From contig JABBOH010000003.1 of NCBI GenBank assembly GCA_019351895.1, positions 1 through 64,000 of the forward strand: 64,000 nt of DNA, given 5' to 3'. Each line of letters opens with the position of its first letter. Within the stretch, counting starts at the first letter, position 1. Below the pieces are notes generated by a model that saw only the letters and a program-made list of their open reading frames with translations, had not been told where the DNA came from and ran no database searches. Of the stretch, positions 47,482-59,634 are shown piece by piece. Source of the stretch: Pseudomonadota bacterium. Lineage in GTDB: Bacteria > Pseudomonadota > Alphaproteobacteria > Acetobacterales > Acetobacteraceae. A program made the position numbers and the translations under genes.

Positions 47482-48372
47482 CTAGTAACCCGGTTGGGAA
47501 AGGGCGTAGGAGAGCGACCACAGCTCCAGACTGCTGAACCATGCGCCGCCCGGTGTGAGGCTTTCGAGTTCGTGCGAGAGGGCGCCGACATACCAATCAC
47601 CGCAAGCGGGCTTTAGACTGCTCGACAACGTCACCGTCGCCCCATATTCGAGCGTCGGATCGAACAGCGCCGTCAGGTCAAAAACCTGGACGCCGTTGAT
47701 GCTGGGGTAGCCGACAAGCCCATTTGCAGGAGAGATCGTCACGGGCGCCACCGGCCGCTTGCCATTGCGCGGCCAAATGTAGAGGCAGCCGTTGTGAATC
47801 TCGCCGTTGATGTTCGCGGCGTGGAAGACACTCCTGATCTGGTCCAGCAGGCAGCCATAGAAGTATGGGTTCGACAGGATGACGTTGACGCCGAAGTTCT
47901 GGAAGTTCAGTGCGGGGGTCATCCTCGCCGCCATCCCCTTCAGAATGTCGGCAACGTTCATGTCGCCCGCGAAGCTGGTGGCGTCTGCGGGCTTCACCAG
48001 GTCGAGCATCCCAGGGAACGCCTCAGCCACGAAGCAGGTCTCGGGCATGCCGCTGTAATCCTGCCACGCGTTGGAAATGACGCCCTCGAAGATCTGGTTC
48101 ATGCCTCCGACAGCGTCTCCAGCGGAGATCGAGAGGGTGTTCAATCTACCGTTGAGCTTCGGATTTCCGCCGAGCGTTGAGAGCTGGTTCATCAGACTTT
48201 GCGACATCCCGTAGATGCGGGCATTCGCGAACCCCATCCCCGGCATCGCAGCACGCTCGATCTGCACCGAGCAGCGGTATCCGGCCAGCGTTACCGTATC
48301 GAAGCCGCTCTCCCCGTAGCTGCCCTGGCCCAGCTTGATCGTGATCGTGATCTGGCGCTCGACGAAGCTCAT
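47482..48372 (-). CDS. Phage baseplate hub-like protein
   Basis: 'MSFVERQITITIKLGQGSYGESGFDTVTLAGYRCSVQIERAAMPGMGFANARIYGMSQSLMNQLSTLG...GDAVGGMNQIFEGVISNAWQDY...' resembles hub proteins of Mu/BcepMu-type tails. Confidence 0.72.
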   Translation of the reverse strand: MSFVERQITITIKLGQGSYGESGFDTVTLAGYRCSVQIERAAMPGMGFANARIYGMSQSLMNQLSTLGGNPKLNGRLNTLSISAGDAVGGMNQIFEGVISNAWQDYSGMPETCFVAEAFPGMLDLVKPADATSFAGDMNVADILKGMAARMTPALNFQNFGVNVILSNPYFYGCLLDQIRSVFHAANINGEIHNGCLYIWPRNGKRPVAPVTISPANGLVGYPSINGVQVFDLTALFDPTLEYGATVTLSSSLKPACGDWYVGALSHELESLTPGGAWFSSLELWSLSYALSQPGY

Positions 48373-49994
48373 TGCATTCCCCCCGATGACGTTATCACGG
48401 AACGATTAGTCACCCGTTTCAGTTCGTGATGAACCGCTTGTGCGATCTTCTGCGGATCACCGCTCGGCACGTTGACGCTCACGTTGATCTCAGTCGCGCC
48501 GTGGTGATGCACAACGCCCGAGGCGTAACGCGACGACGGAGAGCGCAGGCCCTTGAGCACATTCGTGACGCTGCCCGGAAGGCCCGACGCATTAGGTATC
48601 CACATCGAGCCGTTGCCCTCTGCCACCGACATCGCGGAGATCAACGCCTGCGCTGTCTTAGGGTCTCTCAGATCCAGCTTGCTGTCGCCCGTCAGGTTGT
48701 AGCCGTAGCTCTTCATCTGCTTGAGAACAGTAGCCGTGTAGGGGCCGCGGTCGGTCGTCGTCCACGCGGGCACGAGCTTGTTGATCGTGTTGTCGCCGCG
48801 GCCGTAGTCCAGAAGCATCTGGTGGTAGTCAGCCCCGACGCCTGCTTCCATTGACGAGAAGACGGCGAACCCGCCGCTGTCAGCGTGGGCGCCAGGCTGA
48901 CCAGCAAACTTCAGGTTCAGCGGGTTGTTATTCCGCAAGCCCCGCGGCCCAACGCCAGGCAGCGGATTGCTATCGCTCGACGGGAACTGCAGCGCCTCAG
49001 AGACCCACTTATGAACCCAGGCACCAGCCCGGTTAGCATCGCTCTGCATCGCGTTGAGCCCGGAGCCGCTCTCGGTCGTGCTGCTACTCGCAATCAGCTT
49101 GTAGAGGGCAGAGTGCGTGAAACCCTGGACAAAATCCGTCATGGTCCTGGCGAAGGCGGTCATCGCAGGAGCGGCCTGGGCCGTGAGTTCCAGGGTGACC
49201 TGCTCAAACGACTGCCGGAGCAAATTTGTCTGCTCGACCAGCTTCTGCAGCGCCGCTGCCTGGGCGGGCGTCTCGTTGCCCTTCTTCGCCTGGGCGGCGA
49301 GATACTTCGCGACTGCCGCGGGACCCTGCGAAACGACATACGCGGAGCCTTGATCGAGCCCGACCATCCCCTGCAGAAAATACGTCCGTTCGCTCGGCGA
49401 CATCGCCTGCACCGTTCGGTTGGACGCAAGGTCGCGCATGATTTGAGTCGGGTCCTCGCCCGGCCGGATGCCCACCTGAGCCAGTGCCATCATCGCTGCT
49501 GAAGGGCGCTGCCCGAACCGAACCGCCGCCTGCTGACCCGCCAGATTGGCAAGGGACTGCTCGGCTGCCGCGGCGTTGCCGCCGCTAGCCGCCACCGCGT
49601 TGCCCCAGGCGGCAAACTTCGTAACGTCGATACCAGCCATGCTCGCTGCACGCGCAATCGCCGCTCCTGATGCAGCCGTCGACGCAGCATTGAACGCCTC
49701 TTTCAAGGCGCCAAGTCCTACCGCAGCCAGCCCAACATGCATGGCAAGGTCGGCAAAGGGAGCCAGCATAGACCGACCGGATTCCGCCACGCTTTTGCCG
49801 ACCGACGAAGCCTGCACGTCAACCGAACGCAGCGCCGTGTTGGTGCGCTTCGAGTGCTTCTCGATGTCGGTCGCGGTCCGGTCGACGCGGCGCTTCGTAT
49901 CTTCGAGGCTCTTGTTGGCTTCCTCTTGCCCGCGCTTAAAGCCGGTGGCATCGAGGTTTAGCGCAACGATGAGGCTATCAATGATATTAGGCAT
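48369..49994 (-). CDS. Tail tape-measure-like protein with lysozyme-like domain
   Basis: N-term 'MPNIIDSLIVALNLDATGFKRGQEEANKSLEDTKRRVDRT' tape-measure style; C-terminal 'GLRNNNPLNLKFAG...GFAVFSSMEAGVGADYHQMLLDYGRGDNTINKLVPAWTTTDRGPYTATVLKQM' structural-lysozyme-like. Confidence 0.8.
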   Translation of the reverse strand: MPNIIDSLIVALNLDATGFKRGQEEANKSLEDTKRRVDRTATDIEKHSKRTNTALRSVDVQASSVGKSVAESGRSMLAPFADLAMHVGLAAVGLGALKEAFNAASTAASGAAIARAASMAGIDVTKFAAWGNAVAASGGNAAAAEQSLANLAGQQAAVRFGQRPSAAMMALAQVGIRPGEDPTQIMRDLASNRTVQAMSPSERTYFLQGMVGLDQGSAYVVSQGPAAVAKYLAAQAKKGNETPAQAAALQKLVEQTNLLRQSFEQVTLELTAQAAPAMTAFARTMTDFVQGFTHSALYKLIASSSTTESGSGLNAMQSDANRAGAWVHKWVSEALQFPSSDSNPLPGVGPRGLRNNNPLNLKFAGQPGAHADSGGFAVFSSMEAGVGADYHQMLLDYGRGDNTINKLVPAWTTTDRGPYTATVLKQMKSYGYNLTGDSKLDLRDPKTAQALISAMSVAEGNGSMWIPNASGLPGSVTNVLKGLRSPSSRYASGVVHHHGATEINVSVNVPSGDPQKIAQAVHHELKRVTNRSVITSSGGMQ

Positions 49995-58264: not shown

Positions 58265-59634
58265 GCTGACACCCGCTCGATCTGCCGCAGCGCCACCACG
58301 TTCTCCTCTGCCGGCTTCAGGAGCCGGGTGAGGTAGCCTGCCCAGGTGTCGAGCGCGTGCCGCTTCTCGGTCAGATACTCATAGGTGTTGTAGACGCGGC
58401 CGGTAACGCCGCGGGCGGCGTGGTTGAGCACCTTGGAGATGATGAACTCGGGGATGCCGAGGCGACCCATCTCTGTTGCGACGGTCCGGCGCAGGTCGTG
58501 GATGCCCCACTCCTCCATCTTCGCGGCCCCAGGGTCTACCTCTAGCCGAGCCGCCATGACTTTTTGCTCGATCCGCTCTTTCGCACGGGAGAAGCCGCTG
58601 ATGGGTGTGTTGCCTTCAGTCGTGAAGACGAAGGGGCTCGGCCGGGTCGAGTGGTTCTTTTCGGTCATCGTCTTGCGCGGGAGGGCCGTGAGGACCTCCA
58701 GCGCCATCTCGGACAGAGGCACGACATGCGCCCTTCCCGCTTTCGTTTGATCGGCGGACAACGTCCACGTCTTCCCGTCCAGGTCGATATCGGCCCAGCG
58801 CATTCCCGCGACCTCGGTTCGACGTTGGCCGGTGATGAGGCACATTTGGAAGAACGGTCCGAACGGATAGCCAGCCGCGGCGAAGCGGGGCCATAGCTCT
58901 TTCACCTCATCGGCCGACAAGGTGCGATCGCGCGGCTCCTCGTGGCCGGGTCGCTCCACCAGCGCGCATGGGTTGACCTCCACCAAGCCGCGCCGGATCG
59001 CCCAGTTGAACAGGGCGCGAATTGCGGAGAGCACTCTGTTCGCTGCGATCGGGCCACCCGCGGCGCGGATCTTCTTGCCGTCCACCTTGCGCTCCGTCCC
59101 GCGCTCGGCCACATCGTCCAGCATTTCTATCACGTCTTTGCGAGCTAATGATGCCAGCGACCTGTCACTCCACCGTGGCAGAACGTGGTTGGTGAAAAGA
59201 CGCCGCGTCTCGACAACGTAGCCGGCCGAGCGCCCCTTCTTCGTCAGACCACGCTGCAGATAGTCCTCAATCACCTCGGAGAGCAGCTTGGGCTTGGCGA
59301 CCGGCGCCTTGGCTTTTGCCTTCTCTTCGGCCGGATCGACCCCCCGAGACAGCAGCGCCAGCATGTCGCCCGCCAGCCTGCGCGCGTCCGCAAGGCTCAG
59401 TGCGGGGTAGGACGGTTCCAACGAGATCCGCTTCTGGGTCCCGCGGTACCTATATAAGAGCATCCATGTCCGGCGCCCCTCCGGAGTGCGCGGCGTCTTG
59501 CCGGCTACCCTCAGCCCAAAGCCAGGCAGCGTAGCGTCGAAGTAGTCCACCCGCCCTCCAGGCGGAGCTGTCAAGCGCTGAGCGGCAGCATCCGTGAACT
59601 TAACGACTGGCACCGAACCCTCCTCGGAAAACAT
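58261..59634 (-). CDS. int: Tyrosine-type integrase, P4 family (DUF4102 arm-binding domain)
   Basis: 'VDYFDATLPGFGLRVAGKT...WMLLYRYRGTQKRISLEPSYPALSLADARRLAGDMLALLSRGVDPAEEK'; catalytic 'TGQRRTEVAGMRW', 'HDLRRTVATEM', 'LNHAARGVTGRVYNTYEY'. Confidence 0.96.
   Translation of the reverse strand: MFSEEGSVPVVKFTDAAAQRLTAPPGGRVDYFDATLPGFGLRVAGKTPRTPEGRRTWMLLYRYRGTQKRISLEPSYPALSLADARRLAGDMLALLSRGVDPAEEKAKAKAPVAKPKLLSEVIEDYLQRGLTKKGRSAGYVVETRRLFTNHVLPRWSDRSLASLARKDVIEMLDDVAERGTERKVDGKKIRAAGGPIAANRVLSAIRALFNWAIRRGLVEVNPCALVERPGHEEPRDRTLSADEVKELWPRFAAAGYPFGPFFQMCLITGQRRTEVAGMRWADIDLDGKTWTLSADQTKAGRAHVVPLSEMALEVLTALPRKTMTEKNHSTRPSPFVFTTEGNTPISGFSRAKERIEQKVMAARLEVDPGAAKMEEWGIHDLRRTVATEMGRLGIPEFIISKVLNHAARGVTGRVYNTYEYLTEKRHALDTWAGYLTRLLKPAEENVVALRQIERVSA

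What the first reader, a model, noticed from the sequence alone, without database searches (positions are those of the whole stretch)
47482..59634. Satellite-like replication module joined to terminase, tape-measure and hub genes, with no recognisable portal, capsid or tail tube/sheath genes
Seen: int, AlpA-like, primase-helicase, terminase and packaging-region genes, a tape-measure/lysozyme protein and a baseplate hub, all on one strand and all open. No ORF between 42 and 60 kb reads as portal, capsid, scaffold, head-tail connector, tube, sheath or wedge. Established: P4-like and PICI satellites pair int/AlpA/primase with a few hijacking genes, and capsid-forming PICIs carry head and packaging genes but not tails. 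Here terminase plus tail-interior genes without head genes is the converse. Inference: the element may redirect packaging and tail assembly of a helper phage (own TerL, own tape measure and hub). The alternative is an efficiently pruned prophage.
Basis: partly seen in the sequence, partly recalled or inferred. Interest (0 to 1): 0.85.

Follow-up and report, generated by a model that had tools for sequence, protein, structure and literature searches.

The report
Satellite carrying phage assembly-control genes
This 17.6-kb piece of bacterial DNA is one of a widespread, previously unnamed family of virus parasites that bring their own DNA-packaging motor and a few assembly-directing parts, apparently to rebuild another virus's shells and tails into carriers for themselves.

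Summary
The element is 42203-59843, bounded by a 47-bp perfect repeat of the tRNA-Lys 3' end. It carries int, AlpA-like, primase-helicase, a putative TerS, TerL, tape measure (TMP) and baseplate hub, all open. It has no portal, capsid, tube or sheath.

It is not a one-off pruned prophage. 23 of 299 genomes sampled from the order carry the same TerL in similar elements; 14 are delimited by tRNA repeats at 13.3-18.5 kb. Six-frame profile searches of 40 elements found 0 with phiAO1-type portal, capsid, sheath, tube or spike, against 12-19 of 19 related prophages. The only phiAO1-type proteins they carry are assembly factors: head-protease N-half (6), its C-terminal scaffold-like half (10, never with the N-half), Neck1 (13), hub (9), TMP (10 or more), Dit (2). 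Hubs moved between phages and satellites at least four times. A diverged circular element with the same gene kinds, Rctr16k, was sequenced from a bioreactor's viral fraction.

Best reading: a terminase-bearing satellite that builds chimeric particles on a phiAO1/E217-like myophage. Vibrio PLEs were shown in 2026 to use their own TMP and hub this way. Function here is inferred; nothing was tested experimentally.

The parts
42203..59843 (.). whole integrated element, 17.6 kb
   Evidence: 47-bp perfect direct repeat of the tRNA-Lys 3' end at both ends
42127..42202 (+). tRNA-Lys(TTT), integration site; repeat copy 42156-42202
   Evidence: ARAGORN; repeat
59797..59843 (+). second att repeat (47 bp)
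58261..59634 (-). tyrosine integrase
   Evidence: PF00589 2e-20, PF13356 2e-15
57656..58264 (-). 202-aa protein of unknown function, overlapping int
   Evidence: no Pfam or PHROG match
57358..57603 (-). AlpA-like excisionase/regulator, weak call
   Evidence: HTH_17 E 0.1, below cut-off; position as in relatives
54066..57176 (-). primase-helicase, 1036 aa
   Evidence: phrog_16593 7e-32 (N-terminal), phrog_10537 2e-31 and phrog_19930 9e-17 (C-terminal)
53185..53652 (-). possibly SpoVG-like nucleic-acid-binding protein
   Evidence: only Pfam match in its small family is SpoVG, E 0.13 in 1 of 4; fold model of low confidence
52863..53192 (-). 109-aa protein of unknown function
   Evidence: weak phrog_21978 0.007
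52555..52848 (-). orf97, homologue of the C-terminal (scaffold-like) part of a phage head maturation protease
   Evidence: phrog_2229 positions 330-426, 6e-13; 38% to phiAO1 protease residues 317-396
51815..52555 (-). orf246, satellite-specific helical coiled-coil protein, candidate capsid-size redirector
   Evidence: in 22 of 40 elements, 0 of 19 prophages; AlphaFold pLDDT 84, all helical
51459..51809 (-). putative small terminase subunit
   Evidence: relative found near TerL in 39 of 40 elements; no HMM match
50011..51462 (-). large terminase subunit, Walker A GRRGGKS intact
   Evidence: phrog_2 8e-23, phrog_9 5e-21; 5951 homologues
48369..49994 (-). tail tape-measure protein with embedded murein-hydrolase domain, 541 aa
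   Evidence: phrog_2276 8e-36, phrog_873 4e-15
47482..48372 (-). baseplate hub, E217 gp41 family
   Evidence: phrog_196 2e-43, PF22759 2e-12; 28% to phiAO1 hub
47142..47471 (-). 109-aa protein of unknown function at the end of the operon
   Evidence: no match
45869..47107 (+). acyltransferase-3 cargo gene
   Evidence: PF01757 2e-19
44497..44694 (-). ribbon-helix-helix regulator
   Evidence: phrog_4738 7e-7
42567..43442 (+). ClpP-like SDH-type serine protease cargo
   Evidence: PF01972 7e-20, phrog_11747 1e-31

Best explanation
The element is an intact phage satellite of a widespread, unnamed family. It integrates into a tRNA-Lys gene, excises and replicates with its own integrase and primase-helicase, and packages its own DNA with its own terminase. 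It takes portal, capsid protein, tail tube, sheath and fibres from a contractile-tailed phage of the phiAO1/E217 type. It supplies a few control proteins: a scaffold-like head factor (orf97) with a satellite-specific coiled coil (orf246) to steer capsid assembly, and its own tape measure and baseplate hub to nucleate the tail, set its length and eject DNA. The resulting particle would have a chimeric tail. Shown: boundaries, gene content, absence of building-block genes, recurrence, purifying selection on family genes, repeated exchange of hubs with phages. Inferred: helper dependence, packaging, the capsid-steering role, and use of TMP and hub in the particle.
For: Precise tRNA repeats here and in 13 relatives, 13.3-18.5 kb. 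23 of 299 genomes in the order carry the TerL, in 13 of 65 genera; more occur in Methylobacterium, Bradyrhizobium, Aureimonas, Nitrobacter and Acidobacteria. 0 of 40 elements have phiAO1-type portal, capsid, sheath, tube or spike, against 12-19 of 19 prophages; protease halves, Neck1, Dit, hub and TMP recur. dN/dS in the closest pairs is 0.04-0.06 for TerL and 0.08-0.21 for orf97-type, coiled-coil and protease genes. The hub tree needs at least 4 satellite/phage switches on well-supported branches. In this window, hub, orf97 and the TMP N-terminus all match phiAO1. G294 and G225 carry a capsid gene 98-99% identical to phiAO1's besides their satellite. Particle evidence from a diverged look-alike: Rctr16k, circular 17 kb, 219x in a viral fraction, with no head proteins annotated by its authors. 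Precedent: PLE TMP and hub are found in PLE virions, and tmp deletion cuts transduction by 96-99% in PLE1 and PLE4 (PMC12987554).
Against: No induction, particle or helper experiment exists for this element. The genome shows no PF04860 portal, phiAO1-type capsid, second hub or second phrog_2229, so a helper would have to come from outside, be of another type, or lie in missing sequence. Satellite and phiAO1-type capsid do not co-occur more than expected across the order (6 of 23 versus 59 of 276, counted). Some family members carry no recognisable tail gene (for example G190, G019), so tail control is not universal. TMP and hub in this window are only 28% identical to phiAO1's and have no close relatives from which to measure selection. 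Rctr16k shares only TerL at 27% and gene kinds, and its free-phage fraction was filtered but not stated to be DNase-treated.
Confidence: 0.75

Rival explanations
1. It is a satellite, but TMP, hub and the protease fragment act as saboteurs: they are incorporated into or titrate helper tails and heads to block the helper, and are not part of the satellite's own particle.
For: Parts are variable and often single (hub only in G236, Neck1 only in several), as expected of decoys. Tail-assembly interference is a known defence strategy (PMC11364771, title and abstract).
Against: TMP, hub, Neck1 and TAC are often clustered as in a working operon (L124, L129, L150). The TMP keeps a murein-hydrolase domain, useful for DNA ejection and not needed in a decoy. 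In PLEs the same kinds of protein are found in virions.
Confidence: 0.2
2. It is a prophage that lost head and tail genes locally and is decaying.
For: It has tail and packaging genes without the rest; no helper is visible in the genome.
Against: The same reduced set recurs in tens of independently inserted elements of similar size, TerL is under strong purifying selection, hubs come from several phage lineages, and all ORFs are open.
Confidence: 0.04
3. It is a capsid-forming PICI relative that lost its capsid and portal, relying on another satellite or phage for heads.
For: cf-PICIs also combine integration and terminase genes, and some carry putative tmp genes (PMC12987554 Extended Data Fig. 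10). One diverged TerL relative, L134, has a Mu-type portal.
Against: None of 40 elements analysed has a phiAO1-type capsid or portal. A pooled Pfam scan of 145 element proteins found one portal, in L134, and no capsid among the 25 of 26 families listed.
Confidence: 0.08

Closest known systems
PLE (phage-inducible chromosomal island-like elements, Vibrio cholerae)
   Same: Satellite-encoded TMP and baseplate hub (and TAC) substitute for phage parts in chimeric contractile tails; not all PLEs carry a hub (PMC12987554). Methylobacterium members here carry Neck1, hub, TAC-like and TMP genes.
   Different: This family has its own TerL and putative TerS and head-protease/scaffold pieces; host range is mainly Alphaproteobacteria. 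No sequence comparison with PLEs was made here.
[quoted passage not shown]
   Same: Satellite with its own packaging genes; some cf-PICIs also encode putative tmp.
   Different: cf-PICIs encode capsid, portal and connector proteins (PMC13230959); none of 40 elements analysed here has a phiAO1-type portal or capsid.
SaPI/PICI with CpmB- or Rcm-type redirection
   Same: A satellite protein resembling the helper's scaffold redirects capsid size (PMC12409344); orf97 resembles the C-terminal part of a helper-type protease.
   Different: SaPIs use TerS with the helper's TerL (general knowledge); orf97's redirecting role is not shown.
P4-like satellites
   Same: int, AlpA-like gene and large primase-helicase; steals capsid and tail from a myophage (general knowledge).
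   Different: Has its own terminase and tail parts; no Psu match, and no significant match of orf246 to Sid (7jw1 only at E 0.7).
Virus Rctr16k (KX853514)
   Same: Circular 16.7-kb element from a viral fraction with int, replication protein, TerL, head maturation protease, TMP and a second tail-like gene, and no head proteins annotated.
   Different: TerL only 27% identical; other genes not homologous by BLAST.

Membership tests
Phage satellite (integrative) | integrase with defined att sites in a short element | tested here: met
   47-bp tRNA-Lys repeat, 17.6 kb
Phage satellite (integrative) | lacks a complete set of virion genes | tested here: met
   no portal, capsid, tube, sheath
Phage satellite (integrative) | mobilised in particles by a helper phage | not testable with these tools
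   only indirect support from Rctr16k
PLE | satellite-encoded TMP/TAC/hub genes | tested here: met
   TMP and hub in the window; no TAC in the window
PLE | sequence homology to PLE genes | not tested
   PLE sequences were not fetched
cf-PICI | own capsid, portal and connector genes | tested here: not met
PICI (SaPI-like) | TerS without TerL | tested here: not met
   TerL present and conserved in 40 of 40 elements
PICI (SaPI-like) | Stl-type master repressor | tested here: inconclusive
   only an RHH regulator found
P4-like satellite | Psu and Sid | tested here: not met
   no such PHROG or Pfam match; fold match to Sid not significant
Degraded prophage | gene loss unique to this copy, with relaxed selection | tested here: not met
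   recurrent architecture and low dN/dS in the family; the window's own TMP and hub could not be tested for selection

The most novel reading that the evidence does not exclude
A widespread satellite family, mainly in Alphaproteobacteria, packages its own DNA with a private terminase and holds, next to it, an exchangeable slot of virion assembly-control genes (head protease half or scaffold half, satellite-specific coiled coil, Neck1, TAC, Dit, hub, tape measure) taken repeatedly from phages. It thereby directs assembly of both head and tail from stolen bulk subunits.
Probability: 0.55. Interest if true: 0.82.

Novelty: new variant of a known kind. Interest (0 to 1): 0.72.

Why it matters
Satellites were long thought to steal tails unchanged. 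Chimeric tails were shown first in PLEs in 2026, whose authors expected the strategy to be broader (PMC12987554). This family appears to be a case with its own terminase, in many genera, with both head- and tail-control genes. It suggests a general rule: satellites carry the low-copy proteins that decide what is built and steal the bulk parts. Several named type strains carry members, so the rule can be tested.

Tried and rejected
Pruned prophage: rejected. Portal or capsid hidden in unassigned ORFs: rejected by profiles and size, and for orf246 by a fold model. Shortened tail as the purpose: not supported, since the window TMP (541 aa) is close to phiAO1's candidate (526 aa) and to the clear prophage TMPs (579-755 aa); several automatic TMP picks are doubtful. 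Resident helper: none of this type found in the assembly. Satellite-helper co-occurrence: no enrichment across the order. Fold model of 53185-53652: too poor to use. Known defence genes in the left arm: none in PADLOC. The bump of 15-20 kb contigs among TerL hits is only suggestive.
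Full report
Observation. The finding is real. ARAGORN places a tRNA-Lys at 42127-42202, and its last 47 bases recur exactly at 59797-59843, so the integrated element is 42203-59843, 17.6 kb. Reading from the integrase end on the minus strand: integrase, a 202-aa protein, a weak AlpA-like HTH protein, a 1036-aa primase-helicase, a possibly SpoVG-like protein, a 109-aa protein, orf97, orf246, a putative TerS, TerL, a tape measure with embedded murein hydrolase, and a baseplate hub. 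The left arm (42.2-47.1 kb) holds accessory genes: a ClpP-like protease, an acyltransferase, a ribbon-helix-helix regulator and small ORFs. All are open. No ORF of 250 aa or more is unassigned, and no portal, capsid, tube, sheath or spike match was found.

A hidden head piece. orf97 (52555-52848) matches only the last ~95 residues of phage head maturation proteases (phrog_2229 positions 330-426, E 6e-13) and is 38% identical to residues 317-396 of the phiAO1 protease. In phages such C-terminal parts often act as scaffolds (general knowledge, for example P2 gpO); that role here is inference.

Recurrence. Searching 299 genomes of the order with TerL gave 23 genomes in 13 of 65 genera, with full-length matches 41-66% identical apart from self. 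Fetched neighbourhoods show int, small genes, AlpA-like, primase, often a recombinase, TerS, TerL and then a variable set. Direct repeats at tRNA genes (Lys, Glu, Ala, Ser and, with only 15 bp, Tyr) delimit 14 elements including the window's at 13.3-18.5 kb. G019 sits in the same tRNA-Lys next to the same host genes. Named relatives include Acidocella aminolytica, Acidiphilium iwatense, Siccirubricoccus soli, Methylobacterium, Bradyrhizobium, Aureimonas and Nitrobacter, and Acidobacteria MAGs. Since contig length and TerL identify G190 with Acidocella aminolytica, the window's family is Acetobacteraceae (inference).

What the variable slot holds. Compared with Acetobacter phage phiAO1, a mitomycin-inducible myophage whose authors judged it incomplete (PMC8566455), the cargo maps onto a few genes only: protease, Neck1/tail completion, Dit-like, hub and the N-terminus of the TMP. 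tblastn of 21 phiAO1 proteins found portal, capsid, sheath, tube and spike in 0 of 23 satellites but in 12-19 of 19 related prophage loci. Iterated six-frame profiles over 40 elements gave the same: Neck1 13, scaffold-like C-half 10, TMP-N 10, hub 9, protease N-half 6, Dit 2; portal, capsid, connectors, sheath, tube, phiAO1-type chaperone and spike 0. The two protease halves never occur in one element; with only 6 and 10 cases this could be partly chance. Other TMP families appear in G130, G261, G169 and Rctr16k. Three members of a pooled set match a tail assembly chaperone PHROG, and one carries PF21822 TAC. orf246-type coiled coils occur in 22 of 40 satellites and none of 19 prophages; the model is confidently helical without a significant structural match. 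One diverged TerL relative, L134, has a Mu-type portal, so the TerL family is not exclusive to headless elements.

Selection and exchange. Among the closest pairs dN/dS is 0.04-0.06 for TerL and 0.08-0.21 for the orf97-type, coiled-coil and protease genes; the window's own TMP and hub could not be tested. In the hub tree, well-supported branches force at least four switches between satellite and phage; G067 pairs with prophage L115 (100/100) and G153 lies with prophages L105 and L110 (100/99). Satellites therefore appear to recruit hubs from phages repeatedly, while TerL is a shared family trait not found in the compared prophages (0 of 19).

Helper. The window genome shows no PF04860 portal, phiAO1-type capsid, second hub or second phrog_2229. 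G294 and G225 carry satellites with a protease 66% identical to phiAO1's and, elsewhere in the genome, a capsid gene 98-99% identical to phiAO1's. Across the sample, co-occurrence is not enriched (6 of 23 versus 59 of 276; counted).

Particle evidence. Rctr16k (KX853514) is Genome 5 of PMC5099504: circular, 17 kb, 219x depth, from a pooled viral preparation in which the biomass fraction was DNase-treated and the free fraction was filtered; the authors found a putative tail protein and no head proteins. It has TerL (27% to the window's), a head maturation protease, a weakly scaffold-like protein, TMP and a helicase loader. The resemblance is in gene kinds and order.

Mechanism. PLEs build chimeric tails with their own TMP and hub; the proteins are found in PLE11 virions, tmp deletion reduces PLE1 and PLE4 transduction by 96-99%, and the authors note tmp genes in other satellites, including some cf-PICIs (PMC12987554). 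By analogy this element would package its DNA with its own motor into helper capsids shaped by orf97 and orf246, on tails begun from its own hub and TMP. The analogy is strong for the tail genes, weaker for the head genes.

Verdict. A real, recurrent satellite type, working like PLEs in its tail genes, excluded from cf-PICIs by the absence of capsid and portal, and distinct from SaPI-like PICIs by its TerL. New variant of a known kind; interest 0.72.

Noticed in passing
window 45869-47107: Acyltransferase-3 gene inside the element on the opposite strand; such genes in phages can modify surface polysaccharide and so alter phage adsorption.
   Followed up: partly
window 42567-43442: ClpP-like SDH-type serine protease with weak similarity to head maturation proteases (phrog_53, 6e-6) at the left end of the element; role unknown.
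   Followed up: partly
L134:10705-12087: A TerL relative (47-48%) in an alphaproteobacterial MAG is followed by a Mu-type portal gene: a phage or a capsid-bearing relative of the family.
   Followed up: partly
L039 (G019), genes at about 3449-5148: Two adjacent 270-aa genes starting with the same residues in the satellite at the same tRNA-Lys site.
   Followed up: no
L124:12252-13301, L129:5031-6071, L150:11918-12958: A conserved ~350-aa protein of unknown function (about 70% identical among these three) between TerL and Neck1 in Methylobacterium elements, with no Pfam match.
   Followed up: partly
L071 (KX853514, Virus Rctr16k), whole record: A circular 17-kb genome published as a phage in 2016 looks like a satellite.
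   Followed up: yes
G294:C1:248178-249212 and G225:C56:261616-262650: Capsid genes 98-99% identical to phiAO1's in two satellite-bearing genomes: possible natural helper-satellite pairs.
   Followed up: partly
pooled satellite proteins: RusA-like Holliday junction resolvases and HicB antitoxins occur among satellite cargo genes.
   Followed up: no
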